From Phytophthora colocasiae (lineage: Eukaryota > Oomycota > Peronosporomycetes > Peronosporales > Peronosporaceae), in the NCBI GenBank assembly GCA_018806915.1, contig JAGKQI010000069.1, positions 868,001 to 932,000 on the forward strand: a stretch of DNA of 64,000 nt. The letters are read 5' to 3'. How positions within the stretch are numbered: position 1 is the first letter of the stretch; each line of letters opens with the position of its first letter. The translations under genes were made by a program, and so were the position numbers. Below, piece by piece: positions 3,001 through 58,507 of this stretch. The notes under the pieces are model-generated. The model made no database searches. It had not been told where the DNA came from and worked only from the letters and a program-made list of their open reading frames with translations.

Positions 3001-3256
3001 CCTTCCGGAGGACAGTTGGGTCCCAGAACTGGATGCCGACGAGTACGAGGTCGAACGGATCTCGGACATGCGAAGTGGGAAACGGACTCGCTACGGCCGG
3101 ATCTATCGTGAATTCCTGGTGCACTGGGTCGGTTATGATGAACCAACTTGGGTCGACGAAGCTGATCTTAACTGTGGAGCCATACTGAGCGCGTTCCTAC
3201 GTGATCATGCTAACCGAAATCGGTTTGGCGTGATGCAGTCGCACGAAGAGGTGTAG
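1..3256 (+). pseudogene. Gypsy copy A, 3' part of pol (RT end, two RNase H domains, integrase, chromodomain)
   Basis: This is the C-terminal two thirds of a Ty3/Gypsy polyprotein, cut by the window edge. It is closely related to the intact pol at 38141-43831. In order it shows the RT thumb, a retroviral-type RNase H (about 560-1000), a second archaeal/plant-type RNase H (about 1060-1460, motif SFDGSA then NEAEYRG and GDSNLVIRQ), an HHCC plus DDE integrase (about 1880-2420), and a C-terminal chromodomain (about 3030-3200). Against the intact copy it has a 2-bp insertion near 133, an internal stop near 189, further frame breaks near 360-490, a CAG-to-TAA stop at 2399-2401 and a 1-bp loss near 2524. 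It is a dead copy. Its GATC content is very high, as in its relatives. Confidence 0.93.
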
Positions 3257-3667
3257 ACGCAGAGAAGGCGACGTGACCGGGTCACAACGCCGAGATCGCG
3301 GATGCTGATCTGGATGTCTATCTGGATCGGATGTGGAGATTTTATATTTTTCGTGGAGATTTTATATTTTTCTTGTATATGCATGTGAAACCGGAGTGAT
3401 TGGATGGAAGGTGTGGAGATTTCGAAGATGCTAAGTGGGATCGAAACTGTGGAGTAAGTATGGAGAAGAAACGCTGGTTTTTGAAGCTGGAAAGATTACG
3501 TGGAATTGAAAAGAGGCTAGGCTGGAGTCAGATCGCGTGGCGAAGTACCGGATCGTGATAGAGGATATGTAAGCGTGCTGACCGACTCGGGCTTCAGCTG
3601 ATCACCTCCGGACTGGTCGAGATCGCGGGATCAGGGAGTCCCAGGAGGTGTAGGTGGAGCAGGCGGG
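3257..3667. other. Spacer between pol and the antisense ORF of copy A
   Basis: No coding capacity is seen. It holds the convergent 3' ends of pol and the antisense ORF. A 20-bp AT-rich unit is tandemly duplicated at 3333-3352 and 3353-3372. A short related AT-rich segment with the word GTATATGCATGTGA occurs downstream of pol in copies B and D, so this is probably a shared pol 3' UTR or termination region. Confidence 0.6.
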
Positions 3668-8682: not shown

Positions 8683-10740
8683 GTCGATACGGCAAAGATG
8701 CCTGTGGTGATCGTGTATGCCAGCGACTGGGCGATCTCCGCTGCGTTGACGCAAGAACATGACCAGATCTACCACCCGGTCGCGTTCGCCAGCCGAACCC
8801 TGAAAACGAACGACCTGAACTACAATGTCGCAGAGAAAGAAGTGTTATCCCTGCTACGGATCATAAACTGTATTACAACATGTTGGTGGGTCGCCGGATC
8901 AAGGTCTTGACCCGGCATTCCACCCTTGCCTGGTTGTTCAAGTCAGCTGGTCTCCAGGGGCGCCTAGGTCAATGGTCTGCACTCCTATCCCCATGGTCGC
9001 TTGAGATCACGAAATGTACGAAAGGAGAAGACGAGATACTGGGGGCGTTCGCGGCCAGCATGACGCCCAGAACGAAGGTCGACGACGCCCTGATCGCAAT
9101 CGCACCCCTTAAGGAACCCAAGCGCCGGATCCAATCCCCAGTGCCCACGGTGGGTCAAGATGAAGAGTTGTAGGTGTTAAGTTTCGACGGATCTGCCCGG
9201 GTCAAACGAGGCGGGGGCACTTTCAGTGCGATCGTGTGGAGTGGAGTATCCCTGGTTGGAAGGTGACTGAGGTTAGATCCGGCTACGCCGAAGGCCTTAC
9301 GGTCAACGAGGCAGAATACAACGGGCTCCTCCTAGGACTCGATATGCTCGCAGGTCGGGATCGTCGTCGCCTGGTAATCTGTGGTGACTCAAATCTCGTG
9401 ATCCGTCAAGTTCGTGGCGAGATCGATTGTAAGGCGCTAGGATTAACGATATTGAAACAGAGGACACTGTTCATGTGAAGAGAGACTGGAACGGGAGTGC
9501 AGACAGCCTGGCAAGCGCAGCTCTACAACGCCAAGGCGGGATCGAGGTCCATGACGATGCAGATCAGCAGGATCTAGTCACCTTAAATCGACTAGATGAG
9601 ATCCTGATCCCCAAGACCGAAGACCCGGTGGTCCGAGTGTCCGCAGTAACTACGCGGGCCGCTCGAGGGAGGGTGGATGCCGCCGTCCTACAAGAAGAGT
9701 TGGTCCGATAAATGAGGATCGATCGAATCAAGCGGGCGCAGGACGAAGAAACTTGGATCGCAGGATTTAAGAAATACCTGATCGGGCCGATCACGGGCAT
9801 CACCCAAGCAGAATCACGATCCTTTAGCAAGACCGCGTCCGACTACGACGTAGACGAACACGATCTGCTTTTCTACTGTCCTTCAACGCCGAGGTCAGAC
9901 GCCGATCGGGACCGACTGATGAAGCTGGTGATCCCTGAAACTCTACAACAGGACGTCCTTCACCATTATCATACGACTCTCGAAGGCGGACACCAGGGAA
10001 TCGGGTGTACCTACCAACGGATCCGGAGTCGGGGACTTTATCATAGCATGCAGAGGTATGTGGGGGAATGTGTGGATTGCGAGACGGGAAAAGGTAGACC
10101 TACTATCCAAGGCGAATCCCCAGGGAATTTGCAAGCGACTTCCCGTTCCAGATTATAGCAATGGACCATATACCGTCCTTGCCCAGATCCGATAAGGGCA
10201 ACACCGAGTTGCAGATCGGGGTCGATCTGTTCTCGGGATATGTGATTGGCAAGGCCAGTTCCTCTCGATCCGCCCAGACGATCGCGGAATCTTATGAGGA
10301 GTGTGTGTTCCGAAGGTTTGGTGCCAGCGAGATCATCCGACACGAGCCGGGTTTCATGTCCGACTTCTTCCGATCCTTCAACAGAATATTGGGGCAACGG
10401 CAGCGAGCGACTATGGCATATCGCCCCCAAGCCAATGGAACAGCAGAGCGAATGGTACAGACGGCAACGAGGACGATCAAGATGTATGTCCAGGATCTTG
10501 ATCAGAAGGACTGGAATGAGTACGCTGAGCGGTTAACGTTCGCGATCAACACCGCCCACGACCGGATCCGGGGAGATACTCCTCATTGTCTGCTACACGG
10601 GTGGGATCCGAGATCGACGTTGGAGGCTACGATACCAGTTGGGTCCACCAGGCATCACGATCGTGATCCTCGTCGATGGCGATATAGGGTCCAAAGATAC
10701 TATCAGCATTCACGGGAACAAGTCAATGCCTGATTGCGGG
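8683..10740 (+). pseudogene. Gypsy copy B, pol part 1 (RNase H domains to integrase)
   Basis: This is a decayed relative of pol in element D, entered abruptly inside the first RNase H domain (FDTAKMPVV region). It continues through the second, archaeal-type RNase H (SFDGSARV, NEAEYNG, GDSNLVIRQV), the HHCC finger (HHYHTTLEGGHQG, CVDCETGKG) and the DDE core (MDHIPSLPR; TAERMV at about 10445). Frame breaks occur near 8870, 9170, 9230, 9470, 9710 and 10140. The sequence stops at 10740, where element H inserted. It resumes at 24553 in the same frame (QVNA, stop, LREAV), which shows B is the older element. Confidence 0.92.
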
Positions 10741-11200
10741 TGTAACGGGGTTACACGTACAAGTGGTTGTACCACTTGTAACTCTAACAGTTAGGATAAC
10801 TGTTAGAGGTTGGAAATGGGCCTCAGACCTTGGTGTGCTGTACACACCAAAAGGATACATGGGCGAACCACATTATTGGGTGGTTCGTGTGCATTTGTGC
10901 ATATTATTGGTAGAAAGTAACGGATTTCTACCAATCACTGAGCAGAGTTTCTGCCAACCACACGTTGGCAGACCCTTTAGAAATAGATAACAAACAGTTT
11001 TAGGAGGTCCATAATTGGCTTATGCCAAATTCAATAACAGTTCTCATTTTACGGTATTTTGCAGTTAATTTAGTTATATTTGATTTAATTATACTTATTT
11101 AAATAAGTATACTTAAATTAAGTCTATTCTAATTGCACGCTTCCTCATACACGTAAGCGCACGTGTACGCCATCTAATAGGTCTAGGTAGACCCATTACA
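10741..11200 (+). repeat. 5' LTR of element H
   Basis: It starts TGTAACGGGG and ends CCCATTACA. It is 460 bp long, against 458 bp for the 3' copy. By eye the only differences are single-base run-length changes (GGGG/GGG and AAAA/AAA). Hairpins such as CTGCCAACCACACGTTGGCA fill its first half. The last part is AT-rich (about 11050-11120). Confidence 0.93.
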
Positions 11201-11202
11201 CC

Positions 11203-11220
11203 TGGTAGCACTTTGTAGTC
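11203..11220 (+). other. Primer binding site of element H
   Basis: TGGTAGCACTTTGTAGTC lies two bases after the LTR end. It begins with TGG, the complement of a tRNA 3' CCA, so a full tRNA 3' end is the expected primer. I cannot assign the tRNA. It differs from the PBS shared by elements D and E. Confidence 0.65.
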
Positions 11221-11336
11221 CGTCCCACGACCGACTGCTGTTCGTTCGTATGGAGTCATACGAACGCGGGGTAGAGAACTCCCCAATGGATGAGGGATCC
11301 GCTGGGACCCCTCACATGTCCGTGACGCGCATGGAC

Positions 11337-11506
11337 TGTTGGAAAGTGTACCCACTTTTGCTACAGAAGTTGAAGTTGCCGTTGCAAGAGTGATGGTAGA
11401 AAGTCCGCGTCCCGCGGCACTTAGTTGTATGTCAGTCTCAGATTTACCTTCTATCTAACAAGTTGACGTCTTTGCATTAAGACATCTCCCAGTGCTCACT
11501 CCGTTA
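11337..11506 (+). repeat. 5' LTR of the Copia element
   Basis: It starts TGTTGGAAAGTG and ends CTCCGTTA. It is identical by eye to 16640-16809. If the TSD is taken as ATGGAC instead of TGGAC, the LTR is one base shorter. Confidence 0.9.
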
Positions 11507-11520
11507 GGGTTATGAGCCCA
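11507..11520 (+). other. Copia primer binding site (half-tRNA type)
   Basis: GGGTTATGAGCCCA follows the LTR directly. It does not begin with TGG. Its complement, TGGGCTCATAACCC, has the form of an initiator tRNA-Met anticodon stem-loop with a CAT anticodon. This fits priming by a cleaved half-tRNA, as known for Drosophila copia and some other Copia lineages. Confidence 0.7.
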
Positions 11521-11573
11521 AACCACGTTGCGTCCAAGAGAACACGATCGTAAGAGAATCAAGAGCAGTAGCG

Positions 11574-14500
11574 ATGTCATCTTCCTCCGACTCAGACGAC
11601 GGCAAGTCCAAGCGCAAGTCCTTCAAGATTGATCTTCTGGGACTCCTGTGCGCTGGAATGGAGAAGATTGACGTTCTACAAGCACGCTATGATGAATGCG
11701 TTCGAGAAGAGCCTTCTAGACGAGATAGTGCTCGGCAAGGAGGTGAAGGACGAGAACTGGGACGACGAGAAGAAGGGTGAATTCAAGAAAAAGCAAGCCA
11801 AGATCAAGATTTTGATCCAGGATCACTGTCTGCGAAGCTTGCCAAGCAAGTCATGATGAAGGAGACTGGTACGAAGATGTGGGCTGAGCTCGTCGACATC
11901 TACGAAGGCAAGACCAATCCCGCCATGACTGCGCAGAAGGTGTATCGCCTGCAGTGCGAGCTCCACAAGACTCATCTGCGCGGAAAGGACGACTTACGCA
12001 GTCACCTGTACAAGTTGTTCGACATAAAGAACAAGCTTGCGGACCTGGGAGCGCCCGTGAATGACTTGCAGATGGTGGACAAGATGCTGCGAAGCCTGCC
12101 AGCACAGACGTGTTACGATGAGCTTCTGTAGAAAAGTACCATTTAGTTCAAACATGGCTAAATACACGCCGGAGCTGGTTCGAGAGCTAATCTTGACGGC
12201 TGAGGCAAGGAATAAAGACTGGGAAGGAAACGCCTTTGGAAACAAGTCTGGCAAGAAGAGTCAGAACTCAAAGAGCGCATCTCAGCAAGGACCAAAGAAG
12301 CAGAGCTCGAAGAGCGAATCAAAGTCGAAGACCAGTAAGACCGAGATTAAGTGCTTCAACTGTGGTGAAATGGGTCACTACAAAAGTGATTGTCCGAAAC
12401 TGGAAGACGAAGAGAAACCAAAGGCTCAAGCGAAATACGCACGATCAGGCGACAAAGTCGCAGCAGCTGAGGATGAAACACATCAAGCGGAAAGTGAAGT
12501 CGCTGAAGATGTCGAGAAAACGAGAGGTGGTCATTGGTGAAGTAGTGCGCAAGATGGCAAAGGACTATGACCCGGGTCTGTGGTATTTTTGATACGGGTA
12601 CAAACGCACACATTACCGCCTGTAAGGAGTATTTCACTACACTCCACGGCATGGATGACAGTGAATGGAACCCAAGCATTTCTGGGTTCGCCGACGGTGT
12701 CGATGCCAAGGCAGAGGGCTTTGGTACAGTGATTTTATCGACACTGATTGATGAACAAATGGTGCTTTTTGTTGGTGGAGAAATGTGCTCTACGTTCCTG
12801 GGGCTGGATGCAAACTTGTTTTCACCTGGATTGGCGTTAGACCAAGGTTTTGAAATGAGTTGGGATTCCAGTACACGGTTATTTGGCATGACGAAGGATA
12901 CTGTGGAGGTGATTCTGCACAGAGTACGACAACAGACTGTGGACTTTCACCACTCACAACATCATGGCCAAACACATCGATAAGAAGAAGACTCACGTCA
13001 AAGGCAAGGTGTTTGGCGAACTTTGCAGTTTCTGATGGAGTTGGAAGACATTGATGTATGGCACGAGAGGTTAGGACACACTTGTCCTGGAGTACATACG
13101 TTTAATGGTGGACTGAGGCATGGCTCGCGGCATCATGTTGAAACGTCGTGGCAAGATCGCCTGCTCCGATTGCCATTTTGGCAAACAACGACGCAAGACA
13201 TTCCGGAAGGCTCTCGATCGACCTATAGAGAGAGTAAAATGACATGGTCTTCGCAGACTTGTTGGATTCCTGGCGTGAACAATGGTTCGAGGTACACCGC
13301 CGTCTTAGTAATTATGGACGGATACTCGCGTTATGTGAAGACTTCACCTACTGGAAGACTAAAGGTGAGCGTGAAGTCAATGAGCACATGATGGAGTATA
13401 TCGCTTGGGCAGAGCGACAGCATGGAAGACGCGTGGACACGGTGGTAACGCGTCAGTGGAATATCGACGATGAGCTGGAAGTTGAACCAGTCAGACAAGT
13501 GCTTACCGACAAAGGGCAGGAGTTCTGGCAACGGCAACGATTGAGCGATGGTACCGCAAGAAAGGCATCGTGCATACCAAAGTCGGACCAAATGCGTCAC
13601 AGTTGAACCTCGTGGAACGCACACATCAAACTATCGTTGGAATGATCAAGACGATGATGCACCAGGCAGGTTTGCCGAAATCGTTTTGGATCCATGCACT
13701 GGAGAACGCAGTCTACGTTAAAAATCGAGTATTCTGTAAGGGGGCTGGACGGACGCCCTACGAACTGATGTTTGGATCAAAGCCAGATATTCTCCATATT
13801 CGAGCTGGTTCACTTGTATATTGCCACAACACCAAAATCAAAGCGAAAGAAACTCAGTATGAACTGTCAGAGTTGGCTTTCTGCTAGGCTACCGAGAGGA
13901 CGTGGTTGGCTGCAACGTGTATTTCCTGACGGAACACAAGACTGGATTCGTCTCTGATGTCAAGCGTGAATGAGAGCATCAATATAAGGACCGCTACGAG
14001 AGCGGGTTCAAGGTCAAGGTCGACAAGTGGCTACGGACATTCCAAGAGCTCTTTGAGGACGGTGAATTTGAGGACCTGCCAGGTGATGAAGAAGATAATG
14101 ACTCGCAGTTGGCTGGAGTGTGATGGCGAATCTGGAACACAGTATGAGTGACATTGTCATGCGAGAGCGCGAACAGTGAAGGAGTAAACGACGAAGATCA
14201 ACCACTTGAGAACGGCACTGTGTGGGACAAACTAGGTGAAGGAGATTGTGGCTCGTGTAGTGACAAAGTCTCCAAGTAGCTCATACAGTTTGACGAGTGA
14301 AAACCAGGCTTTGTGGGAAGAGATGCTACAGAACACTGAGCTGCCTGATTATGGAAGATGCGTCCGAGACGCAGGAGGGCGAAAGTGCTGGAAGTGTTCC
14401 TGTTGGGTGCGGTAAATGACCAAACTCTGGATAGAGACGCCGAAGTGTCGACGCAGAAAGTGTTGATGGTTTTGAAGACCAGAGCGTCGATGAAGACATT

Positions 14501-16625
14501 GAAAGAGACAATAGTGACCTTGATGAAGACACTGATGATGAAGAACTGGCTGGATCTGCCAGTCATGCGTCGAACCTCAAGGCACAAATAGCTGAAGAAG
14601 AAGCAAGTAGTGTTGAGGGGAATTATGATGATTTGTTTGATCCAAGTGATGAAGCTGGAAGCCATTGACTGGGGTGATGACCAGGCGTTAGTTCCAAGTG
14701 ATGAATATGAAGATGGTGCTGATAGTGGAGAACACGCATTAGTCCCGATTGGCTGCCAAGAGCTTGCACTACCAACAAAACCACATCATCGGTCACAGAC
14801 GACCTCGAGAGGTTGAAGTTCGACGCACACAAGACAGGAAGCGTACTAAGGTCGACGTGAAGCGATTCAAATCAGAGAACACTTCACGCAGACCAGGTCT
14901 CCGCGAAACATGAAAGACGACCACCAAAGCGCTTTGAGGACTATGAAGTGAGCTCGGCTTTCAAGGCACTGCATGCTAACCGCCGAGGATCTGGTGGTAT
15001 TCGTGCTTGTGAGGTGAAAATCCCAAGGACATACAGAGAGGCAAATGAGATCGAAGTATGCCAAGGAGTGGAAAGAGGCTATGGATCAAGAGATTCAAGC
15101 TCTAAAGGACAAAGAAGTGCTGAGTATGATACCAAGATCAGATATGCCAGCGACTCAACAGACAAATAAGACGATGTGGGTCTTTGCTTTGAAAGTGGAT
15201 CACCTTGGCTATGTGACTCGGTTTAAGACTCGCATTGTTGCTCGTGGAGATAAGCAGCGACGCGGTATTGATTACCAAGAAACGTTCTCACCGGTGGCGA
15301 GGATGGCCACGTTCAGACTATTTGTCGCGATGTGTGTGGCTTGGACTAGTGATCTACCAAGGAGACGTGAATACCGCTTACCTGAACGCCGCCTTTATCG
15401 ATAAAGCAGTATCTGGACGGGCTGGAAGGTTATCCCTGTGAGCTAGAGGGACACATTTACTCGGTGAACAAGGCTCTGTATGGTCTGGAGGCAATCTGGT
15501 AGGGAGTGGAATTCCTGAGTTTGACGGTTGGTTGAAAGACTATGGTTTCGAGCGCAACAGCACAGAGCCTGGCCTGTATGTCTACAAACACGATGGCCAG
15601 TTTGCGCTAGTCCTGATCTACGTAGACGACATTCTTTGCGCCACAAAGGACGAAGCGTTTAAGGTCGTTGTTTACCAAGTTCGACAACGACTACGGACTC
15701 AAGGACCAGGGATTGCTGAATAAGTACTTGGGCGTTGAAGTGGAGCAGAACACCACCTGATGAAGATTCATCAAACACAGTATTGCACGGAGGTTTTGGA
15801 AAGATTCAATTTTGAGATGCTCACGCGAGCAGGATTCCGATGGAAACCAACACTCGGTTTACTTCGAAGGATACTGATGATGAAAGTGATCGTCGTAAGC
15901 AGAAACCAGCGTTTGGCAGAGACTTTCCTTACTGAGAATGCATTGGTTCTCTGATGTACCTAGCTACATGCAGTAGACCAGACATTGCGTACGTGGTCGG
16001 CCAGTTGAGTCGATACGTACAAGACCGACACAGCAGCACATTGGTGCAGCTAAACGATTGTTGCGGTATCTTGTTGGAACAAAGAGTCAAGGCATTGTGT
16101 ACTCCACCAGCAAGGATGAGGAAGACAAGAAGGACTTGCACCTGGACGGATACTGCGACTCGACTGGGGCAACGACCCCGACACAAGAAAAAGAGTATTT
16201 CGGGCTACGTCGTGAATCTGCCGGCGGTGCCGTATCATGGGCATCAAGGCGCCAGACGATTGTTGCTCAGTCTACCGCTGGAGGCCGAGTACGTTGCGGC
16301 GTGCGAAGCATGCATGGAGGGCCAAAGTCTACGAAACATCCTAATTGAAGTGTTCCCTGAACTAGCGGTGAGCTTTACGCTTGGGATTGACAACCAGGCG
16401 GCCTTCGTGATGGCGACTAATCCTACGTATAGTAGACGTACTCGACACATTGAGCTTCGATGGCACTACGTGCGTGACCAAGCGACGAAGAAGACTGTGG
16501 ACCTGTGGAAAGTTCACACGGACGACAACCCGTCCGACATTTTTACGAAGCCCCTGGCAGGAGCGCGACACGAGAAACTTTGTGCTCTGCTAGGTCAATC
16601 CAAGGAGCCTTTGCCGAAGAAGTGA
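11574..16625 (+). pseudogene. Copia gag-pol polyprotein, broken
   Basis: Gag begins near the ATG at 11574 (Ser/Asp/Lys-rich start) and carries a CCHC knuckle, CFNCGEMGHYKSDC, at about 12355-12396. Protease shows DTGTNAHI near 12590. Integrase shows WHERLGH near 13055 and a C-terminal core around 13430-13790 (DKGQEFW, NLVERTHQT, RTPYELMFG). RT spans about 15050-15720 (YQETFSPVARM; YVDDIL near 15620). RNase H ends with FTKPLAGARHE near 16545. More than ten frame changes or stops interrupt it; some are single substitutions (a Trp-to-stop near 11665), others 1-bp indels. It cannot make a full polyprotein as assembled. Confidence 0.9.
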
Positions 16626-16628
16626 CTT

Positions 16629-16639
16629 CGGAGGGGGCG
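16629..16639 (+). other. Copia polypurine tract
   Basis: CGGAGGGGGCG ends directly at the 3' LTR start and follows the polyprotein stop codon. Confidence 0.75.
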
Positions 16640-16809
16640 TGTTGGAAAGTGTACCCACTTTTGCTACAGAAGTTGAAGTTGCCGTTGCAAGAGTGATGGT
16701 AGAAAGTCCGCGTCCCGCGGCACTTAGTTGTATGTCAGTCTCAGATTTACCTTCTATCTAACAAGTTGACGTCTTTGCATTAAGACATCTCCCAGTGCTC
16801 ACTCCGTTA
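16640..16809 (+). repeat. 3' LTR of the Copia element
   Basis: Identical by eye to the 5' LTR. Its last base (A) plus the TG of the target duplication recreate the ATG of H gag. Confidence 0.9.
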
Positions 16810-17760
16810 TGGACTGTGCCCACCTGTCAGATCCAGAGTGGGAAGCTCTCCAAAGACTTTCACAAGTCATTGGAGAGGCAGCGGTAGCGACGATGCTTCG
16901 TACGCTATCGCCGACAGAGCAACACGGTGTTGCTCTGGGGTACATTGTTAAGGAGCAACGAGATGTTGCTGCCTCGGTGGCTTCCCCTAAGCCACGCGTG
17001 GAGTCGTTGAAACTCCACGTGAGTACCTACACGGGGAAGGAGGACGAGACCCTCCTTCGTTGGCTTGTCGAACTTGACACAGCCGTTGTGGCTCGACGTA
17101 TCGTCGATCCGATGTCGAAGGTCGCGTTCGCCATGTCATGTCTTGGCGGACGTGCGAGGAGTTGGGCCTATGGGGCGCCGACTCAGATCCTACGTGCTTC
17201 AGCACGTACGAGGTGTTCGGGCGAGGAACTCGCTTGCGTTTGAGCCTCCGAAGAACGAGTTCAGATCGAGAGCGGAGTTTCTCGATCTGCAGCAGGGCAA
17301 GGATGATGTTCACACCTTTGCTCAGCGTGCCTGATACTTGGTATCGAACATAGTGGCCAACCTGATCGACGAGGCGACCAAGGTCGTCACGTTCATGAAG
17401 GGACTACGAGATGGTCCCGTCAAAACATCTCTTCCGAGAGTATCCGAATACTCTCGAGGAGGCGATCAGCCTTGCAATGCAAGAGGAGTTTCGCCGGCGT
17501 CAAGCTAAACTCCATGCGAACGCGCCGAAGCCGGCGCGTCCTGTTGTGAAGACGGGAGGTCCGGAACCTATGGACCTCTCGAGTGCTACGACTGCTGGTC
17601 AACAGCAGCGTAGATACGGCGCGTCTGATGTTACAAGCGTAGTAACATCGGTCACTATGCACGCGAGTGCACAGCGGGCGGGCGTTCAAAAATGCTGGGC
17701 GACCAGTAGGCGCGGGGCGTCCTACTGGCGATGCAGTCTCGCGTGTTGAGCTTGGACACG
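16809..17760 (+). pseudogene. Gag of element H, broken
   Basis: The ATG at 16809 opens a gag-like protein with the retrotransposon gag core about 16990-17400 (GGRARSWAYG and a following RAEFLDLQQGKDDVHTFAQ region), then a basic linker and a knuckle remnant near 17630-17670 that would read as a CCHC motif (GHYAREC). Frame breaks lie near 17200, 17330, 17420 and 17640. The start codon is formed at the Copia insertion edge. A second, separate copy of this gag lies at 58508-59290. Confidence 0.8.
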
Positions 17761-18368
17761 CGACGATGAGGACTGCTGCCCCCAGCGAGAAGGTTTCTCG
17801 CTGTAAGCTGCAAGATGACAAGCCAAACATTGTCATCCTGAACGTGATGTCGAAGAGAGCGAACTCTCTTCGTGCCCTAGTGGATTCTCGGGCGCGTCGA
17901 AACAACTTTGTTCGACAGGGAAGTCTTCGAAGGTTTGACTTCGAAGAGGCCGACACGCCTCGCGGCGTGTTGAGGTGCGGTTGGCAACAGGTGCCATCTG
18001 TGAGGACTGAGAAGCGCGTAGTCCGTGTGCGCTTCTCTTACAACCGAAGGATGTTTGTAGAAGATCTTATCGTCTTGGATCTAGACGATAAGTTCGACTT
18101 GGTATTAGGCATGCCGTGGCTTGCACGGCATGACCCGGTGATCAACTGGGAGAAGCGTACGCTCGTACGCTTCAACAACACATGCGCGACAGAGAGCATG
18201 GCCCTGTCAGTGCTGCACATGCACCGGCCGGCATGTGGATCCCCAGTTGAGGCAGCAGCGACCGCCGCTGCCTCCGATCGCCGCCGGCGACTCATCAACG
18301 ACTCTGAGAGTCGTTGGGAGAAAGTGTGTCGACTCAGAAATCTGAGCCGAAGGGTCGCGGTCACATGA
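17667..18368 (+). pseudogene. Protease region of element H
   Basis: This is an open frame with the features of a Gypsy aspartic protease: a LVDSRA site near 17880 where the family has DSGA, and the C-terminal GMPWLARHDPVINW motif near 18110-18150. The Gly-to-Arg change in the catalytic triad predicts an inactive enzyme. Hairpins run through it, for example ATGCCGTGGCTTGCACGGCA near 18110. Confidence 0.72.
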
Positions 18369-18525
18369 GTGATGGTCAGGTGAATGTGAATCACCTGACG
18401 CATAAACATCTGAATGATGTTTGTCACATGAGGATGGTCAGGTGAATGTGAATCACCTGACGCATAAACATCTGAATGATGTTTGTCACATGAGTGATGG
18501 TCAGGTGAATCGCATTCACCTGGGA
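18361..18525 (+). repeat. Tandem repeat of about 63 bp in element H
   Basis: Two near-complete units and a partial third, each containing two hairpins (CAGGTGAATGTGAATCACCTG-like and AACATCTGAATGATGTT). Units are contiguous with no unique spacers, so this is not a CRISPR array. Confidence 0.85.
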
Positions 18526-18599
18526 GAAGGTAAAATACCGGTATTACCGGTATCCTTGGAGGTACATCAAGCCCCCAAGGGTCGCGCCGACGACGTCGC

Positions 18600-18910
18600 G
18601 TCAACTCTGGGAGTTGACGAAGCAAATAATATTCGGGGAACCGAAAGGCGTGCGTCAGCTCTGGGAGCTGACGCCACTGGCGCTTCGCTGCTAGTTCCGG
18701 GAACTATGATCGGGTCATCAGCCCGGGAGCTGATGAGACGTGTATAGGCGAACAGTCGCCTGCTAGTTCCGGGAACTAGCGATCGTACATCCGCTCTGGG
18801 GAACGGATGATATGTGTACAAGCGAACACTCGCCAGCGCAGGAAGTTAGCGAGAGCACGTCGACTCCGGTAGTCGACGATGCGGTTGCTTCATCCGCCCG
18901 GGAGCGGATG
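18600..18910 (+). repeat. Cluster of perfect hairpins with similar loops in element H
   Basis: Examples are GTCAACTCTGGGAGTTGAC (18600), GTCAGCTCTGGGAGCTGAC (18654), CATCAGCCCGGGAGCTGATG (18716), CTAGTTCCGGGAACTAG (18763) and CATCCGCCCGGGAGCGGATG (18891). The loops are related (CTGGG or CCGGG) while the arms differ, so they are not copies of one repeat. No conserved domain is seen in 18370-19050. Confidence 0.88.
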
Positions 18911-19050
18911 GAGGCTCAGCGGTTCAGGGGAAACCGACTGCGCGGCAGGAGGTGCTGGCGGTTGCAAAACGCCCAGCACCCGGAACAACTCAGGTGCTCA
19001 CGTGCAGCAGCGCTGCACGCGATGAGCGGCACCCATGCCGGGCTTGATAG

Positions 19051-20992
19051 GTGCGAGTCAGCGGAAGGAATCCGCTGACGATTGGCGATAACGTCCCGTC
19101 CAAGGTGCGATGCCTTGACGTGGAGCACCTGGAGCCGGGCTCCACGGTAGACCTTCGCGGCGCAAGCTCAGGAGTTGCGCGAGTCTCAGTCCGGACTGAG
19201 ACGGGTGTATCTGCAGTGCAGACACCGAGTGCTGAGGACGTTGAACGTCTTGATACGTACTGGTACTGGGTTACAGTACCAGAGGATGCGGTTGAGAATC
19301 CGCCGACGAGTGTCGTCGGCGTTGACCGCACTTCCAACGATGAGCTGAAGCGCTTCGCGCGAGACTTGTACGATGGACGCATCGAACAAATTTGCATTCT
19401 CTCGGATATCGAGAGAGTGGATCGCGAAGCCGAAGAGCTGAAGCAGCTCGTCGTCGATGGGATCACTGAGGGTGATGACTCCTCAGTGCGAAGACTAAGA
19501 AGCAGCGCTTCGAAGAGCAGAGTTGGGACCTCGTTGAGGTCGAGTCCCTACTACGAGTTCTGCGGGAGCACAAGGATGTACTCCTGACGAGATTCCTTCG
19601 AGCTTCCGAAGGACAAGGGCGTACAGCACGAGATTGATCTCGTGCCGGGCAACGAAGTACTGTGTTACACGGCAGTGGCCACTGCCGCGTGAACAAGTGT
19701 AGCGATCGACGACTCTCTTTGAAAGTCGTCGTCTTAGCAGGTCAAGTGCGGAGTCAAAGTCCCCGCACAGTGCCCCAACGTTCTGTGTTAAGAAACTACA
19801 GGGCGGCTGGCGCATCGTTCATGCGTACAACAAGTTGAACGATGCGACGATACCGGCGCAGACGCCGATACCGCGAAAAAGATGTTATCATCGATTCGAT
19901 GGCCTTGAGCACTATCTTCAGTGCTCTAGATCTGCGTGATGGATTCTATCAGATCTCGCGTGAGAGGGACATCCCTCTCACTGCGGTAAGCACTCCAAGC
20001 GGTATGCTTTGGGAGTGGCTCGTCATGCCACAGGGGCTTAAGAACGCCCCTGCGACGTTCAATAGATGCGTGACATATCTATTGCGCTCGGTGCGCGACT
20101 TCGCACCGAGCTACTTCGACGACGTGTTCGTCCACAGCCGGGCTGTGAACGGAAAGATGGATATTGAGATGCACAAGGTGCATCTCCGAGCTGCTAGAGC
20201 TATGAGGAAACATAAGCTCTATGCGAACCTGAAGAAGTGTATTCGGGGCGAGCGAGATACCCGTGCTGGGGTGTCTCGTGGGGAAAGACGGCGTGCGCCC
20301 TGACCCAGAGAAGGTCAGAGTGATCAATGAATGGCCCACGCCATCCAACGTGAAGGAACTGAGGCAGTTCCTCATTTGCCGTACGTACTTGTGCAAGTAC
20401 GTGAAGAACTACGCGGGCAAAATTCGCCTGCTGTCACAGCTTCTAAGAAAGAAGCTGAGTGGATTTGGACGACCGAGTGCGAGGAGGCATTTGGTGCAGT
20501 CAAGCAGGGCTTGACTAAAGCGCCGATCTTGGCCGTGGCGGACCAAGATCGTCCATTCCACGTAGTGTGCGATGCATCCGACTTTGCAATCGGATGTGCA
20601 TTGATGCAACACGATCACGCCCTTCGTGATCGTGTAGTTCATTATCAATCGCGTCAGCTGAAGCCAGCTGAGCGTAATTCATCCCGCACATGACAAGGAG
20701 CTCCTTGCCATGAAGTATGCACTCGCAAAGTTCCGAGTGTATCTACTTAGGAGTAGACTGTTCGTGGTCTATACAGACCACGCATCATTGCGTACGGCGA
20801 TTGTCGCCGCACATCTCGCAACGTATGGCGAGATGGTTGTCCTTCTTCGCGGAGTACAACTTCCGGGTGGAGTACAAACCCGGAAGACTCAATGTAGTGG
20901 CCGACGCGTTATCGCGTCGACCTGACTATGCGGAGACGGTCGACGCCAACGCTGTTGGCGTCGTGAGGACAGTGTGCCGTCGTCAACGTTGA
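19051..20992 (+). pseudogene. Reverse transcriptase and RNase H of element H, broken
   Basis: A linker at 19051-19600 leads into RT. Recognisable RT blocks are LDLRDGFYQIS (about 19925), PQGLKNAPATFNRC (about 20025) and the catalytic YFDDVF (about 20112-20129), then VRPDPEKV and ELRQFL. RNase H follows with VCDASDFAIGCALM (about 20565), VVYTDHASLR (about 20765) and VEYKPGRLNVVADALSRRPD (about 20865-20925). Frame breaks occur near 19590, 19840, 20260, 20330, 20690 and 20820. It has one RNase H only. I found 23 perfect hairpins by eye between 19907 and 20834. Confidence 0.88.
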
Positions 20993-21013
20993 TTGACGAC
21001 GTGAAGAACGCGT

Positions 21014-22954
21014 ATGCAAGGGATGCAGACGCGAAGGGGCTGCTGGAGTTCTCGTAGCACCTTCCGACGTGGCACGTCGGAAGCTAACCTCATTCTTCGA
21101 GCTCGTGTACACCGCTATCGTGTACACGAAGGCCTACTGTTGTACAGTGTGGTAGACGACAATGCGGATCGCATTGTCGTTCCGAATGATCATGACCTCC
21201 GGTTGAGGATCATGTTCGAGTATCACGATGCCCCCACGGCAGGGCATCCGGGTCGTGAGAAGACATACACTCTTCTCACGCGTGACTTCTACCGGCACCA
21301 CCAGTACAGTGGGTGCGCAAGTACGTACGTGCTTGCGAGGTTTGTCAACGCGTGAAGCCTGCGCAGTTCTCGCAGGCTCCTCTTCAATCACTACCGACCT
21401 GTCGGAGTGTTGGCAGTCCATGTCCATGGACTTTGTCTTCGGTCTTCCGCCTGACAGCAAGCGGAGGACGGGCATCGTTGTCTTTGTGGACTGATTCAGC
21501 AAGATGGTTCATCTTGCTGCCGTCCCGGTTACTGTTACAGCTGCGCAGACTGCGCGACTGTTTGCTGACATGGTGTTCAAACACCATGGCATGCCGCTCG
21601 ACATTGTGTCGGACCGTGATCCACGCTTCACAGCGTGGTTCTGGCAAGAAGTGTTTACACTTCTGGTTCACAGTTATCAATGTCGACTGCGGATCATCCG
21701 CAGACGGACGGACAGACCGAACGTGTCAACCGTGTATTGGGTGACACGTTGAAGAGCTACGCTCACTCGTTCCCGCATTGGAGCGAGTGCTTCGCCGATG
21801 GCAGAGTTTGCCATCAACAACTCGGTGCATGCCTCGACAGGGCATACACCGTTCTACGTGAACGCCATGAGGCATCCACGATTGCCGAGCATGCTCGGCG
21901 GGGTAGCTTCTCCTTAAGTGGGGATCTACGGTTGCGTCCGAACAACCGCAGAATACAAACTGATAGCAGCACACTATCAGTTGCGGTGACGCGTGCAACG
22001 TCTCGTTCGGAGCAGGAACGAGCGCGCGATGTCTGTGCCGGGCACAGACATGAGAGATGATAGCGAGCAGGCAGGGCCTGCTGCTGACAGGGCGACAAGC
22101 TGAAAGGATTCAGCTCGGGTGCGCTAGACTTTGTCCAGCGAAGACAAGCCGTCATACGGTTTGTCCAGGATGTTATCGCAGCTTCTGTCGATCGACAGAA
22201 GCTGAACGCTGATAATGTTGGTAGGGCAACATAAATGAATTCAAAGTGGGTTCATTAGTTTTGTTAGCTACACAAAACCTGCCTAAACATGTAGTGCAGC
22301 CTGACTTTGGAGCAAGCAAGCTTGCTCCAAGATTCATTGGGCCGTTCAAAGTACTTGAACGGCATGGTAACGCGTACCGGCTGGACATACCGTCCAGCAT
22401 GAGGCTCCACCCGACCTTCTACGTCGGGCGGTTGAAGCTGCATGTGCAGCACGGACTACCTAGGGTTGGTAGTCCGACTGAGGAGTGCGAGAGGCCTGGA
22501 AGGCCTTCTCGAGACCGTCGACACGGTCGATCAACCGGTTCACTGTCGTCCCAAGACCGGACGAGAGGTTCGAGGCAGTCTGAGCTGCCTCGCAGACCTC
22601 AGCACGGAGGACACGAACTCTCCTGCTTCAGAGCAGCTATCTCAGCGCTTTCCTGTGTCTGCTCCAGCGCAGCAACTCGATCGTGCAGGGCACGATCGTC
22701 ATGGTCATAGCGTTGACCATGCGGAGGAGTGTTCCCACCCTCCGCCGCCGTTGCGCGACGCGCGTGGAGCGATCCGCTGGATTGTGGAGCGGATCGTGGC
22801 TCATAAGAGAAACGAACTCTCAAGGGGTTCGTTTTCGTATTCGTTGGAGAGGATTTCCTCCCCATCGAGATACATGGAGCCGCGGAACCTCCTGATTGAG
22901 GAAGTTACCGAAATTGTGAGGGCGTACGAAGCCCACCATAACTTGCAGGGTTAA
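21014..22954 (+). pseudogene. Integrase and chromodomain of element H, broken
   Basis: The HHCC finger is seen at about 21220-21370 (HDAPTAGHPGREKT, then CEVCQRVK in another frame). The DDE core spans about 21420-21740 (MDFVFGLPPDSKRRTG, DRDPRFTAWFWQEVF, TDGQTERVNRVLGDT). A stop at 21492 interrupts the core just after the first catalytic Asp. After a gap the GPFKVLERHGNAYRLDIP segment (about 22340) and a chromodomain-like end (about 22780-22950) close pol. The stop at 22952 lies about 50 bp beyond the 3' end of the antisense ORF, so the two overlap tail to tail. Confidence 0.85.
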
Positions 22955-24010
22955 ACCCTGCACGAGGAGTGCTGCGGTCAGCCACAGCACTCGGAGCTTC
23001 GCGTGGCACAACACGACCACGGAGTTCCTTGATGTGATCGGGTACACGGACGACCGTGTACCCCAGGAGATCACTTTCGGTGAGGCGTGTTGCCAAGGGT
23101 GGGCAACACGGACAGGGTGTGCCAAAGGGAACGGCACATGGGATCCCCGCTTCCATGGACTGATCATGGAGGCGTTCACACTTACCACGTGTAGTGTAAG
23201 TGTAGTAGCGATCGCGAGCCGCAGCAACGCGCTCGCGATATGCCTTCGGGTCTTTGTTGAAGTTATCAACAAAGGCGTTCCACGACTGACAAAGTGCCTG
23301 CCACTCGGGCACTTTGCTCTTGCGCGAAGTCTTCTTCGCTGCATAGTATCGGAGCTCATGGAAGAGCCCGATATAGTAGTCGCGTCTTTGAGTCTCGGAC
23401 TTAGCGGCGACGTCGTCGTCATTGATACTGTTGCATGAGTACAACAGTATCGGGTTCGGTGGTGAACTAGCACCGAACCGGTCATGGATTTCTACCTCAG
23501 TAGGCATCCATGGTGTGCGCACTGGCGGATCAGTGCGCGGGGCAGTGAGCGCCCTCGACATGGGGGACGCTTCATCATCACTGCGCGGACGCTTCGAGCT
23601 TGAAGCGTCCGAGGCCTCATAACGAGGTCGTCGAGATCCCACGGGTGGGTCTGACGTGTCTTCAGACGAAGACACGGGAGCGGGAGCCTTGACATCAACC
23701 TCCCCCTCCTCGACATCCTCCTCGTAGTCGAGGATGTCTTCGTAGTCCTCTCCAAAGAGTTCTTTGAGAGGACAGCAGGATTCTTAATCTCTGCCAGAGA
23801 AGAAGACTTCTTCTTCTTCTCATGCTTCTCCATGGAGAGCATGGTACTTGGTGACAGAGAGCTTCTCTGTCGGACTGTTGAAGCAGCAGTGCTAGTGAGC
23901 ACTGCTGAGGTCGTTGTTCCTGCTGCAGAGGCAGCGGGTGAGGCTTGCGCGTCCGCAGTAGCAGACGGAGACGTATGCTGGCGAGTCCATTGCGAAATGA
24001 ACTCGGATTT
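22905..24010 (-). pseudogene. Antisense ORF of element H, downstream of pol
   Basis: This frame is opposite to pol and lies between pol and the 3' LTR. The C-terminal 257 codons (22905-23675) are open: a Ser/Asp/Arg-rich start with a bipartite basic stretch (SSSKRPR), then an aromatic, basic region (RRDYYIGLFHELRYYAAKK; DRYYTYTTRG) and a Cys/Pro cluster (TPCPCCPP). Upstream frames (to about 24010) add a Thr/Ala/Ser-rich and acidic N-terminus with a break near 23760. The position matches the antisense ORFs of A/B/D but I see no clear sequence similarity. The function is unknown. Confidence 0.55.
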
Positions 24011-24080
24011 TCTTGGGAACTTGACGGTCTTGTCAAGTTCTGTTGATTGACGTATCGAGACCGATACGTCGAATCTTAAC

Positions 24081-24089
24081 GGGGGATGG
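24081..24089 (+). other. Polypurine tract of element H
   Basis: GGGGGATGG directly precedes the 3' LTR. Confidence 0.7.
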
Positions 24090-24547
24090 TGTAACGGGTT
24101 ACACGTACAAGTGGTTGTACCACTTGTAACTCTAACAGTTAGGATAACTGTTAGAGGTTGGAAATGGGCCTCAGACCTTGGTGTGCTGTACACACCAAAG
24201 GATACATGGGCGAACCACATTATTGGGTGGTTCGTGTGCATTTGTGCATATTATTGGTAGAAAGTAACGGATTTCTACCAATCACTGAGCAGAGTTTCTG
24301 CCAACCACACGTTGGCAGACCCTTTAGAAATAGATAACAAACAGTTTTAGGAGGTCCATAATTGGCTTATGCCAAATTCAATAACAGTTCTCATTTTACG
24401 GTATTTTGCAGTTAATTTAGTTATATTTGATTTAATTATACTTATTTAAATAAGTATACTTAAATTAAGTCTATTCTAATTGCACGCTTCCTCATACACG
24501 TAAGCGCACGTGTACGCCATCTAATAGGTCTAGGTAGACCCATTACA
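24090..24547 (+). repeat. 3' LTR of element H
   Basis: 458 bp, starting TGTAACGGG and ending CCCATTACA; nearly identical to the 5' LTR at 10741-11200. It is followed by the GCGGG target duplication. Confidence 0.93.
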
Positions 24548-24552
24548 GCGGG

Positions 24553-25488: not shown

Positions 25489-26534
25489 TTACGGGGAGGC
25501 TGCCCCAGCAGGAGGAGGATTGAACTTACCGAGGAGGCGGGGAATCCTGGTAGCGGGATGGTTGACTGGGTCATTACGAAACTGGTTACGGCACGGATCC
25601 GCCTCATCGCACTCCTCCAGAAGGTTCGCTGGCTCTGGAACGTTCACGTTGGAATCCGCCTGGTTGGCACGCCGAGAAACCACGCCGGGATACCAACGAA
25701 CAGCATCCACTGCAGGAATAGGGAGGTGGAGGAAGAACGGATCCAGTAAAATGTCGAGATCGAACCACTGATTGCGCATCATGGCGGCGAAGGGGGCGAG
25801 GACTGACACCAAGCGGACCCAGCGCGACCCCGTCTGGACTTACGAGCGGCGTAGGATTGCTGCAGCGTGAGATCCGCGGACTGCATGGCAGTGGTAATGT
25901 CGAGATTGTGGGTAGCCTCCCAAAACGCCTGACGGTGCCGTTCTTCCAAAACGCGATATGTGGCAGCTACGGCCGCGAGAGGTGTTCCTCTCGCTCATGG
26001 TAGGTCGAGGTCGAACGTGAGAGGACCCGGGTTCGCGAAGTCGTTCCACGGCTCCTGGGCCATCAGATCGAGCACGTTCACGCCCGTAATCAACTCGTTT
26101 AGATAGTCGGTGCCGGGAGTCGGTGCGGGTCCAGCCTGCATCCGAGAAGGAAACAGCCAACCCGAAGGGATCAGCAACCGTTTGGCCAAGGAGTTGGCAA
26201 TCAGACCCACGATCGAATATTGCCCGATCACCTGCGGGTCCCATGGCTCAACGTCCGCAGCGGCGAAGGTGCGCTGCCGATCGTAACCCGGGATGAAAGA
26301 AGCGACCGGGAACAGAGGTGGTTGGAGCCCAAGGGGCGAAAGGAGGCGACTGAGGAGGTGACGGTGAACTCGGGGAGGATCCCGAAGGCGATAGGTTCGA
26401 CCCATCCGGAGATGGGCTTGATCCGTCCGGAGATCCCGATCCACGAGCGCCAGAAGATCTGCCTTTTGGAACCTGGCCGGATTCCCGCCGAGCTGAGGAG
26501 ATAGACCGTTGTCGAGCCATGCGTAGTGCATCAG
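25489..26534 (-). pseudogene. Antisense ORF of Gypsy copy B, C-terminal part
   Basis: This is the C-terminal portion of the accessory protein also seen in A and D: an RS/SP-rich stretch (RQRSIS, RSSGARGSGSPDG), then SFIPGY, EPWDPQVIGQYSIVGLI, KRLLIPSGWLFPSR, LITGVNVLDL and the end region HLPIPAVDAVRWYPGVVSRRAN. The N-terminal coiled coil is missing because element E abuts at 26535. A frame break lies near 25990-25810. Its natural C-terminus (GKFNPPPAGAASP) shows that the D copy lost its own end to an insertion. Confidence 0.82.
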
Positions 26535-28563
26535 TGTCGCGAAGTCGGTGAAACTTTGGTCGCGGAGCAGGGGGCGTATAGTGAACCCTAGTTATACGAC
26601 TACTGAAAAGGGGTTTCAGAGTCGTACAACGGTAGGTTGGCGTGTGGTACCTTGCGGTATCCTCGTGGGTTCGTTGTCTTCAGAAATATGACCCTCGCCG
26701 GAGTCTGAGAATGTGTTGTGAAGAGAAGTTAGGGTTCCCTTGGAATCTGGTGTCGGTATTCAGAAAATCCTTCCAGGAGCGTTCGGGAGTCGGAATCTCT
26801 GCGGTCGAAAAGAGATTAATATACCAGAGAAAGTCTAAAATCGGTGTCTGAATACCACAAATCCAGAACCGAGATACCTGACTTTCTGAGATAAACAACC
26901 AATACACAGAGTTCGAAAATATACAAATATATACAGCCGTTCTTATTCTTTCTAGGCCCTTGAACAGTGGGCTAACACTCCAGGTCAACTAGGGACTTGC
27001 TACCAGACACCTGGTCTGTCTGGTATCCCTTTACGTTCGCGCACGATCCTCTAGTATAGAGGAAAAATATAAACCAATACAATCGGCTATATATAACAGT
27101 CTACCTTGCACTCTGAAAACGACTGTCTAGTTTCCAGAGCCTGTCCAAACAAGCAATATGAAATGGGCTACCGCTAGAGACAAAACAAACGACCCAACTA
27201 GGATATGGAATAGGCGGGTCCTTTCAGGTCGCTACGTTACCTGATCTCCGCCTAAGGGGATTGAATAGGCGAGAGATCACACGGCAGCGATGCTTGGCGT
27301 GGCCTTGCAAACAGAAATACAACGACTTCTGGGTTACACGGCAAATTGAACTCTGTTTATCGTTTATCTTCCTCATAACTATCATATATCTCTGGTAACT
27401 CTCTCCTTCTTGTCGTCTTTTGCGTCCTTTATGCAGTCAGCCATCATATGTCAGGTACACTTGGTTCTTGTATGCATCAGGTATCTTGACTTGGCTTCAG
27501 TATGCAGTTTGCGCAGCCGATCTCGATGGGTTAACAGGTAGAGACGTCATTACGGGGGATGTGCAGGTCAGTAATCACTTGAATGCGTGACTTGAACTTG
27601 GGTTCACTTGATTTCAGTATGGTCTCGGATCTTCGGTGGTTTCAGAGTCTGGTATCACTTGGTTTTCAGAGTCTTAGTCACTCAGAGTTAGAGATACCAG
27701 AATCTTGAGTAGGAAACCAGAGTACGGAGTACTAATGCTTCAACGCACATGTAGATCTTGAGGATTGCGCGGGTGCCGCGCGATACTTGGTCTCTGCGGG
27801 TACATATAGTGAATCCTTGAACCATCAATCGTCGCGCTGGACGGTAACGGGATGAGGTCTCTCAGAGATACGTTCTTCTGAGAGACTTTCCGCCAGAACT
27901 TAGGCACTCATCGTCGGGGAAAGTCCGGTGACCAGACAGAGTGTAGTTGACCTTCAGAGTTGTGCACACTCTGAAGTACACTTCTGGTCCTTTGGGCACC
28001 TTTACAGTCAGGCGAAGGTTTACCCACAATCTTCCACAGATGTCGAACGGGTGTGGCCGCGTCCCAAAGTCCCTTTCGCTTATAACCCACATTATAACCA
28101 ATCACATCGTAACGTAATATCCACCTGTCGCTCGAAAATCGGAAATAACATCATGTCATCAGTCCCATGCTCAGCTGCTATCCTACGATCGCCTGACATC
28201 TGGCTACACAGCTGTTCTCCGATCTCCGATCTTGATCTCACCTAACCCTTGATCGCGATCCCGATCAGCGATCGCGAACAGTGATTCCGATCATGAGTCT
28301 CCTTGCTTGATCTCGCATCCCCGCGTTGTCAACATTCGAAATCATGATCTTCCTGAGCTTAAGCATCGCTTCTCCGTGCGACCGATGCTGCAAACACTGT
28401 CAGGGTCAGAAATCTCCTCTTCGGATGATCTCTGCATGATCGCCTCCTTGATACTCTTTGAACCTCCTTCGGCTTAACACGGCGTGGGAACATCACTGAT
28501 GTCCCTGCTGATCCTTGGATATTGGTATCTTCCGCGGTCCTTCGTGGTCAGGTCATTGTTGAT
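26535..28563 (-). repeat. 3' LTR of element E, truncated at its start
   Basis: This matches 55534-58032, minus the solo LTR and two small insertions, from TGTCGCG up to GTCATTGTTGAT, where similarity stops sharply. The right LTR continues another 368 bp to an A-type LTR start. So here the LTR start, the polypurine tract and the adjoining part of the accessory ORF appear to have been deleted. Confidence 0.82.
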
Positions 28564-37743: not shown

Positions 37744-38140
37744 CCATCCCGCTACCAGGATCCCCCGCCTTATCGGCAAGTTCAATCCTCCTCCCGCTGG
37801 GGCCGCTTCTCCGTAAGTCGTGCCAACCTCGATCACCTGCAGCAAAGCTCGGGGCTTCTCCCCGAGTTCGGATTCGGAACCCCATCTAGGGCCGTTTTGC
37901 ATTCTTCCATCTCCATTCGTAACTTTCATAATCTCCATTCGTGATTCTCGCAATCTATCATTTTGGGAACGTGATCCCCTCTCATCTCCATCTCGGCATT
38001 CCGGATCACCATTTCCCAACGTCAAATTCCCTGCTCACATGCATATACACAAATATAAACTCTCGCTCTGATCTGGATTCTCCTCCACATCAGCTCCCTC
38101 GATCACGGCGAGGCAACCCTGTTACCTCGCCTGACCCCTC
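37744..38140. other. Spacer between the antisense ORF and pol of element D
   Basis: It holds the original end of the antisense ORF (to about 37815), then noncoding sequence with the AT-rich GTATATGCATGTGAGCAGGG word in the complement. Pol and the antisense ORF converge here. Confidence 0.6.
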
Positions 38141-55513: not shown

Positions 55514-55531
55514 AATCCGGCACGCGCACCA
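55514..55531 (-). other. Primer binding site of element E
   Basis: On the minus strand TGGTGCGCGTGCCGGATT, two bases after the LTR end (GCGACA). It shares its first 13 bases with the PBS of D, so both families use the same tRNA primer. Confidence 0.82.
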
Positions 55532-55533
55532 GT

Positions 55534-58400: not shown

Positions 58401-58507
58401 GTAGGTACCCAGTTTCAAGGATCTGTCCTTATCGTGGCACCATGTCGCACGTCACCTATCATCGTGGTCGTTCTGCGCCATATCCAGCTTGATTTGAATC
58501 CACTCCA
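58401..58507. other. Short unassigned stretch with an LTR-like end
   Basis: It ends CCACTCCACCACA, similar to the 3' end of A-type LTRs (CGCTCCACCACA), so it may be the tail of a deleted LTR. Nothing else is recognised. Confidence 0.35.

What the first reader, a model, noticed from the sequence alone, without database searches (positions are those of the whole stretch)
10741..24547. Element H is saturated with perfect short hairpins, coding region and LTRs alike
From 19907 to 20834, inside RT and RNase H, I find 23 perfect inverted repeats by eye (arms 5-12 nt, loops 1-14 nt), about one per 40 bp. Examples: GAGCACTATCTTCAGTGCTC (19907), GGAACTGAGGCAGTTCC (20355), CGTACTTGTGCAAGTACG (20384), GTGGTCTATACAGACCAC (20764). 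About eleven have arms of 8 or more. With uniform base use and loops up to 14 I would expect roughly 0.2 such in that length. The arms differ, so this is not a dispersed repeat. LTRs, gag, spacer and antisense ORF show the same texture. The D, E, Copia and host genes do not. In the related gag fragment at 58508 some hairpins carry mismatches, so perfection decays in dead copies. Inference: either quasi-palindromes are perfected by intrastrand template switching during reverse transcription, or RNA structure is selected.
Basis: partly seen in the sequence, partly recalled or inferred. Interest (0 to 1): 0.88.

Follow-up and report, generated by a model that had tools for sequence, protein, structure and literature searches.

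The report
Retrotransposon family packed with perfect hairpins
A family of copy-and-paste genetic elements in what is likely a Phytophthora-like water mould carries a perfect short DNA hairpin about every 55 bases, some twenty times more than chance, in its genes and its ends alike, and several hairpin loops lie flipped between copies, so a copying slip called template switching likely writes them, probably while the element copies itself.

Summary
Element H (10741-24547, with a nested Copia) has 132 perfect hairpins (arm >=7, loop 1-15) in 7,278 internal bases; Markov shuffles give about 6.7. Codon-preserving shuffles of pol frames in other copies give 4-6 against 57-86. LTRs, gag, pol and antisense ORF share the texture; the nested Copia and the other Gypsy elements examined do not. 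A related family (K, RT 72% identical) has it at 5.6-8.1 per kb. Hairpin places mostly turn over between H and K; K subfamilies show 8 distinct compensated pairs. Sense-RNA selection is not supported: G.U and A.C departures are about equally common, sense and antisense fold alike, pairs lie close together, loops shrink to 0-2. At nine hairpins copies differ by an inverted loop, a known mark of template switching. I favour template switching during the element's own replication, held in check by protein selection. Against it: rare variants show no bias toward perfecting stems, neither arm looks overwritten, no switch footprint was found in K. Selection for strand-symmetric DNA hairpins is the main rival. 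Nine paper searches listed no description of such an element.

The parts
10736..10740 (.). Target-site duplication GCGGG, left copy (right copy 24548-24552)
   Evidence: sequence
10741..11200 (+). 5' LTR of H (TGTAAC...ATTACA), hairpin-dense
   Evidence: 99.6% to 3' LTR; 8 hairpins arm>=7 in 461 bases
11337..16809 (+).
   Evidence: terminal repeats; 5 hairpins against 4.4 expected
16810..17750 (+). gag region, 12 hairpins arm>=7
   Evidence: gag frame in copy L015: PF03732, PF19259, PF00098; counts
17751..19800 (+). protease and spacer region, 39 hairpins
   Evidence: PF08284 in copy L024
19801..21000 (+). RT and RNase H region, 26 hairpins
   Evidence: PF00078, PF17917, PF17919 in copy L024
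21001..22050 (+). integrase region, 18 hairpins
   Evidence: PF17921, PF00665 in copy L024
22900..24000 (-). antisense ORF region (a 552-codon frame is open in some other copies), 21 hairpins, all with arm>=8
   Evidence: no Pfam match
24090..24547 (+). 3' LTR of H
20609..20635 (.). Hairpin in RT with loop CCCTT here and inverted loop AAGGG in most copies
   Evidence: 4 against 15 of 20 scored copies, AAGAG in one; reverse-strand match of this stretch at 31 of 39 other RT matches
18503..18521 (.). Hairpin with loop CGC; GCG in other copies
   Evidence: CGC 6, GCG 4, GAG 3
21156..21180 (.). Hairpin with centre GGATC, inverted to GATCC in L017
23799..23819 (.). Hairpin with loop CTTCT, inverted to AGAAG in L014
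24130..24156 (.). LTR hairpin with loop GGA, inverted to TCC in one of the two LTRs of L011
24297..24319 (.). LTR hairpin with loop CACAC, in L016 inverted and 2 bases shorter (GTG)
   Evidence: (12-base cover)
16846..16877 (.). gag hairpin with one mismatch here; in L014 the arm is perfect and the loop is inverted relative to the allele of three other copies
22307..22330 (.). Hairpin whose centre is inverted with a 1-base length change between L009 and L017
58513..59243 (+). Dead gag fragment, 90% to H, decayed hairpins (9.5 per kb)

Best explanation
The H family of Ty3/Gypsy retrotransposons is saturated with short perfect hairpins that are likely written and kept perfect by template switching, in which the growing strand briefly copies a nearby complementary stretch and then returns, probably during the element's own replication. 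Shown: the excess, its presence in coding and non-coding parts, its presence in H and the related K family but not in the other elements examined, turnover of most hairpin places between H and K, compensated pair changes in K, and inverted loops between H copies. Inferred: a short chance inverted repeat with a small loop is extended and repaired by copying one arm into the other; a switch between strands flips the loop; protein selection removes most events in genes; arms much beyond 11 bases are purged. That the enzyme is the element's reverse transcriptase is inferred from the texture being confined to two related elements and decaying in the one dead fragment examined.
For: Excess over Markov and codon-preserving shuffles. 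Mirror, direct and complement repeats are not raised in the same way. Arm >=8 pairs are concentrated at loops 0-16 (104 at loops 0-19, then 0-6 per ten bases), and loops of 1-2 (26) exceed what loops of at least 3 would give (about 9). Strand symmetry: G.U 9 and A.C 13 in one-mismatch stems held by at least 6 of 18 copies, 14 and 13 in shared arm variants, 23 and 33 in K; folding energies of the two strands differ by 0.0 and 1.6 with standard errors 1.0 and 1.2. Inverted loops: of 1,242 pairwise, non-independent clusters of differences, 33 are covered by a local reverse complement of 14 bases or more, against 0 for reverse, complement and distant controls (at 12 bases 35 against 0, 2, 0); by my reading these are eight hairpins, a ninth at 12 bases, and one larger inversion in L016. 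In one search all 5 allele pairs (of 92) that differ at 4 or more loop bases, at three loci, are inversions or inversions plus one change. In the first search 31 of 39 other RT matches also match the hairpin 20609-20635 on the reverse strand, as an inverted loop would. Loops vary more than other sites: shared variants 35 of 504 against 110 of 3,884, P=1.3e-5. K: 28 of 34 comparisons changed on both sides stay Watson-Crick, 8 distinct pairs; shifted controls have 15-37 changed on both sides and 0-10 Watson-Crick. H and K hairpins lie mostly in different places. Other elements with 0-0.6 per kb: 1-3349, 38051-41398, L041, L042.
Against: Rare variants do not perfect stems more than chance: at mismatched pairs of 69 loci 3 listed perfecting changes (one distinct event) against 4 others (two distinct). 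No compensated pair among 38 ungapped shared arm variants in 13 H rows. Neither arm is on the whole more diverged from K than the other. No switch footprint in 199 clusters from three K pairs. Inversions occur at hairpins that are already long, so they may be a result of the hairpins and not their cause; in L011 only one of two LTRs is flipped, which fits host replication after insertion as well. Arms carry fewer shared variants than other sites (32 of 1,887 against 110 of 3,884, P=0.008), which selection on pairing also predicts. The loop excess falls to P=0.03 if about 11 inversion columns, my estimate, are set aside. One K sequence (L033) shares 23 of 420 H pairs, above all rotations (maximum 9).
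Confidence: 0.5

Rival explanations
1. Selection for hairpins in DNA, in either strand: the single-stranded cDNA of the replicating element, or extruded double-stranded DNA, would gain from short local stems anywhere, and mutation plus selection at silent sites builds them.
For: Arms hold fewer shared variants than other sites. Compensated pairs in K, four of eight with both partners at third codon positions. Only 6 of 44 hairpins in conserved pol use the register in which silent sites face each other, so silent changes suffice for most (23 of 86 over the longer frame, null 0.38). Strand symmetry is also expected.
Against: Does not predict inverted loops or loops that vary more than unpaired surroundings. 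Needs a selection so strong that about 30% of all bases sit in arms.
Confidence: 0.22
2. Selection for structure of the sense RNA genome, as in viruses with genome-scale ordered RNA structure.
For: Dense stems in the transcript; compensated pairs.
Against: No preference for G.U over A.C in H or K; sense not clearly more stable than antisense; pairs confined to short range and loops down to 0-2; positions mostly not conserved between H and K; no Rfam match at gathering score.
Confidence: 0.1
3. Template switching during host DNA replication of the integrated copies, not during reverse transcription.
For: Spacer inversions at perfect inverted repeats are reported from wild-type yeast genes (PMC8604942, passages read); one LTR of L011 is flipped and the other not.
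Against: The nested Copia, other elements and most other stretches of the window show no excess; the dead gag fragment decays.
Confidence: 0.13
4. Artefact of composition, simple repeats or assembly.
For: None found.
Against: Markov, codon and repeat-geometry controls; high density in the 20 other genomic copies fetched (9.7-18.3 per kb over whole loci).
Confidence: 0.02

Closest known systems
Ty3/Gypsy LTR retrotransposons (nearest named proteins in Phytophthora cinnamomi, P. ramorum, P. sojae)
   Same: gag, protease, RT, RNase H, integrase in Gypsy order; LTRs; 5-bp target duplication; proteins 85-86% identical over 96-100% of the 741 residues searched
   Different: Two other RT-bearing elements of the same genome (38051-41398, L041) have 0-0.6 hairpins per kb, below expectation; whether the named relatives have the texture could not be tested, their DNA is not held here
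Template-switch mutations at inverted repeats in yeast genes (Abraham and Hazkani-Covo 2021, PMC8604942; abstract and 12 passages read)
   Same: Arm homogenisation and spacer inversion; inversions at long arms (there longer than 9, here 9 to 14)
   Different: There ten spacer inversions in coding sequences of wild-type yeasts; here nine hairpins in one 8.3-kb element that is saturated with them
Template switching creating and maintaining RNA hairpins (Monttinen and Loytynoja 2022, PMC8794818; abstract, discussion and 5 passages read)
   Same: Proposed origin of perfect stems, compensated pairs and rare loop inversions by copying
   Different: There in RNA genes with conserved stems; here in protein-coding, antisense and LTR sequence with stems that move; no hit for 'retro' or 'reverse transcri' in its main text
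Ty3 genomic RNA structure (PMC11381356; abstract and one section read)
   Same: A Gypsy element with structured RNA
   Different: Up to 30% of the RNA in stable structured regions, found by probing; the section read describes no saturation with perfect short inverted repeats
Genome-scale ordered RNA structure of RNA viruses (search listing and abstract starts only)
   Same: Pervasive stems through coding sequence
   Different: A property of the genomic RNA; here the pattern is strand-symmetric

Membership tests
Ty3/Gypsy LTR retrotransposon | gag, PR, RT, RNase H, integrase in this order | tested here: met
   Pfam matches on open frames of copies L024 and L015
Ty3/Gypsy LTR retrotransposon | Flanking LTRs and a short target-site duplication | tested here: met
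   LTRs 99.6% alike, GCGGG on both sides
Ty3/Gypsy LTR retrotransposon | tRNA primer site and polypurine tract | not tested
   not examined
Template-switch mutation at inverted repeats | Spacer (loop) inversion with arms kept | tested here: met
   nine hairpins among H copies; controls zero at 14 bases or more, which eight of the nine reach
Template-switch mutation at inverted repeats | One arm rewritten to match the other in one event | tested here: inconclusive
   one clear case (L014 gag hairpin); no excess of single-base perfection; none in three K pairs
Template-switch mutation at inverted repeats | Copying is Watson-Crick only, no wobble preference | tested here: met
Genome-scale ordered RNA structure | Excess stability specific to the sense RNA | tested here: not met
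   mean sense -88.6 and antisense -88.6 (L015); -88.7 and -87.1 (L024) over 35 windows each, standard errors 1.0 and 1.2
Genome-scale ordered RNA structure | G.U tolerated in stems more than A.C | tested here: not met
Conserved functional RNA elements | Stems at the same places in relatives | tested here: not met
   H against four K sequences: arm columns shared 81-137, rotation means 81-106; paired columns shared 0-23 of 420; no Rfam match

The most novel reading that the evidence does not exclude
One lineage of retrotransposons has a hairpin-writing reverse transcriptase: each cycle it can rewrite neighbouring stretches as reverse complements of each other, so that over time the whole element, silent codon positions included, is turned into a chain of perfect hairpins that move from place to place while the proteins stay the same.
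Probability: 0.33. Interest if true: 0.88.

Novelty: new variant of a known kind. Interest (0 to 1): 0.72.

Why it matters
If the cause is template switching, one element family has accumulated, inside its genes and in many copies, a mutation that is normally too rare to study. It would show how a mutational habit alone can fill a genome with perfect, compensated hairpins, patterns that are usually read as proof of selected RNA structure. If the cause is selection, it would be a kind of genome-wide DNA structure in a retrotransposon that the searches made here did not find described.

Tried and rejected
Composition and coding explanations were rejected by Markov, codon-preserving and repeat-geometry controls. 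Sense-RNA selection was tested by wobble counts, strand folding, range and position and is not supported. A directional arm (which would point to first- or second-strand synthesis) was sought and not found, nor a clear oriented pair bias (L015: G-C 341, C-G 303, T-A 259, A-T 268). Departures from conserved residues in arms: 5 of 120 against 10 of 221 outside at 90% conservation, no difference; right arms alone 4 of 59 (outgroup 96 of the 120 listed proteins, of 2,367 found). Bias of rare variants toward perfection: none. Switch footprints in K: 0 of 199 clusters. Relatives' DNA was sought in viral contigs and genome contigs: no relative found. L034, sought as an older H subfamily, is a duplication of window 58000-60500 with only the gag fragment. 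Nine paper searches, judged by the titles and abstract starts listed, gave no hairpin-saturated retrotransposon. Of one search's 42 COMP lines I judge most to be shifts of register from small insertions or deletions; by eye two H loci look like clean compensated changes. A search of the genome with the H Pol protein itself did not complete, so the list of relatives is incomplete; K was found only through P0020.
Full report
What is there. The closest named proteins of the element come from Phytophthora (84-86% identity for the best five such hits), so the host is likely a Phytophthora-like oomycete. A DNA search with 928 bases of RT scored 40 of 834 first-look candidates; all 40, the window's own included, match at 94% or more over nearly the whole query. 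The surroundings of 20 of the other 39 were fetched.

The observation. 132 perfect hairpins (arm >=7, loop 1-15) in 7,278 internal bases against 6.6-6.9 in shuffles; 102 against 1.6-2.0 at arm >=8. Codon-preserving shuffles of open frames in other copies give the same verdict. All parts of H longer than 400 bases show it, gag least (12.7 per kb) and RT most (21.7 per kb). Arm length has a second mode at 8-9 and ends at 12 in the window's copy; loops run from 0 to about 10, and pairs with arms >=8 farther apart than about 17 bases number 0-6 per ten bases of distance, near what the shuffled rate at short range would give, by my extrapolation.

Who has it. A related family K, found with protein P0020 and fetched as L029-L033, has 5.6-8.1 hairpins per kb against 1.0-1.2 expected; in the RT-integrase part alone eleven K sequences have 3.7-8.6 per kb. 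Its RT is 72% identical to that of H; two other RT-bearing elements compared, L041 and window 38144-43840, are 35% and 24% identical over the aligned part and have 0 and 0.6 per kb (38051-41398). L042 has 0.5 per kb but no detectable similarity to the H RT. The sample is small: two related lineages with the texture, two clear outgroups without.

Does the structure stay in place? In a codon alignment of H and four K sequences (L030 dropped for its 29 stops) H shares 7, 7, 0 and 23 of its 420 paired columns with L029, L031, L032 and L033; rotation means are below 1, maxima 9-22, so only L033 exceeds every rotation. Arm columns overlap about as rotations do. So the texture is common and the positions mostly are not.

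How the hairpins change. Among K subfamilies 85-92% alike (four of eleven sequences used), 34 ordered comparisons changed on both sides of a pair where 10.5 are expected, 28 of them still Watson-Crick, from 8 distinct pairs; shifted controls have 15-37 changed on both sides, of which 0-10 Watson-Crick. Among 13 H rows (15 of 21 aligned, L016 and L019 then dropped), shared arm variants were 14 G.U, 13 A.C, 11 other and none compensated, 19 more with a gap; single-copy variants 41, 42, 75 and 1, 299 more with a gap. Hence no wobble preference in either class, and almost no compensation within the recent copies. Loops carry more variants than unpaired surroundings, and arms fewer shared ones.

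Inverted loops. Copies of H differ at nine hairpins by an inverted loop. The clearest is in the RT region at 20609-20635: CCCTT in 4 copies, its reverse complement in 15 of 20; in the first search 31 of the 39 other RT matches also align to this stretch on the reverse strand. In L014 a gag hairpin has its arm perfected and its loop inverted together. Of 1,242 clusters of three or more differences, 33 are covered by a local reverse complement of at least 14 bases, none by the three controls (clusters are pairwise and not independent). Such inversions are a known result of switching between strands (PMC8604942, PMC8794818; passages read).

Reading. Sense-RNA selection predicts wobble tolerance, strand bias and stable places; none was found. 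Template switching predicts Watson-Crick copying, strand symmetry, short range, loop inversion and turnover; these were found. It also predicts a bias of new variants toward perfection and an overwritten arm; neither was found. Protein selection shapes what survives: in conserved pol 6 of 44 hairpins use the register in which silent positions face each other, null 0.38 (tested), though over the whole 1,370-codon frame it is 23 of 86. I therefore give the switching model 0.5, selection on DNA hairpins 0.22, switching by the host 0.13 and sense-RNA selection 0.1.

Limits. Single-copy variants mix events before and after insertion. The element's enzyme was not tested; its part is inferred from where the texture occurs. 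Outside H the window has a mild excess of long arms (10 against 1.7 at arm >=9 in 24548-58000), six of the ten in one duplicated element.

Noticed in passing
window 57301-57711: A 411-bp insertion, absent from the paralogous copy near 28247, starts with the first 15-16 bases of the H LTR but is otherwise not alignable to it; an 88% match lies inside K copy L029 (4543-4956). Likely a solo LTR of a third family with the same LTR start; it carries an 11-bp-arm hairpin.
   Followed up: partly
window 26528-28563 and 55526-58032: A duplicated element with a mild hairpin excess: in the first copy 7 with arm >=7 against 2.0 expected, 3 with arm >=9 against 0.12.
   Followed up: no
window 22900-24000, minus strand: An antisense open frame downstream of integrase, 552 codons long in several other H copies, without any Pfam match.
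   Followed up: partly
window 19907-20834: The window's own H copy differs from at least 19 of 20 other copies at 27 alignment columns of RT, several of them small deletions, although its LTRs are 99.6% alike.
   Followed up: no
P0020, residues 2-212 and 530-1187: A Phytophthora ramorum database protein matches H in its first part (87-88%) and K best in its last (up to 79%): a recombinant element or a joined gene model.
   Followed up: no
L016 LTR region: One copy shows a larger inversion, of about 57 bases or more, of LTR sequence next to a hairpin.
   Followed up: no
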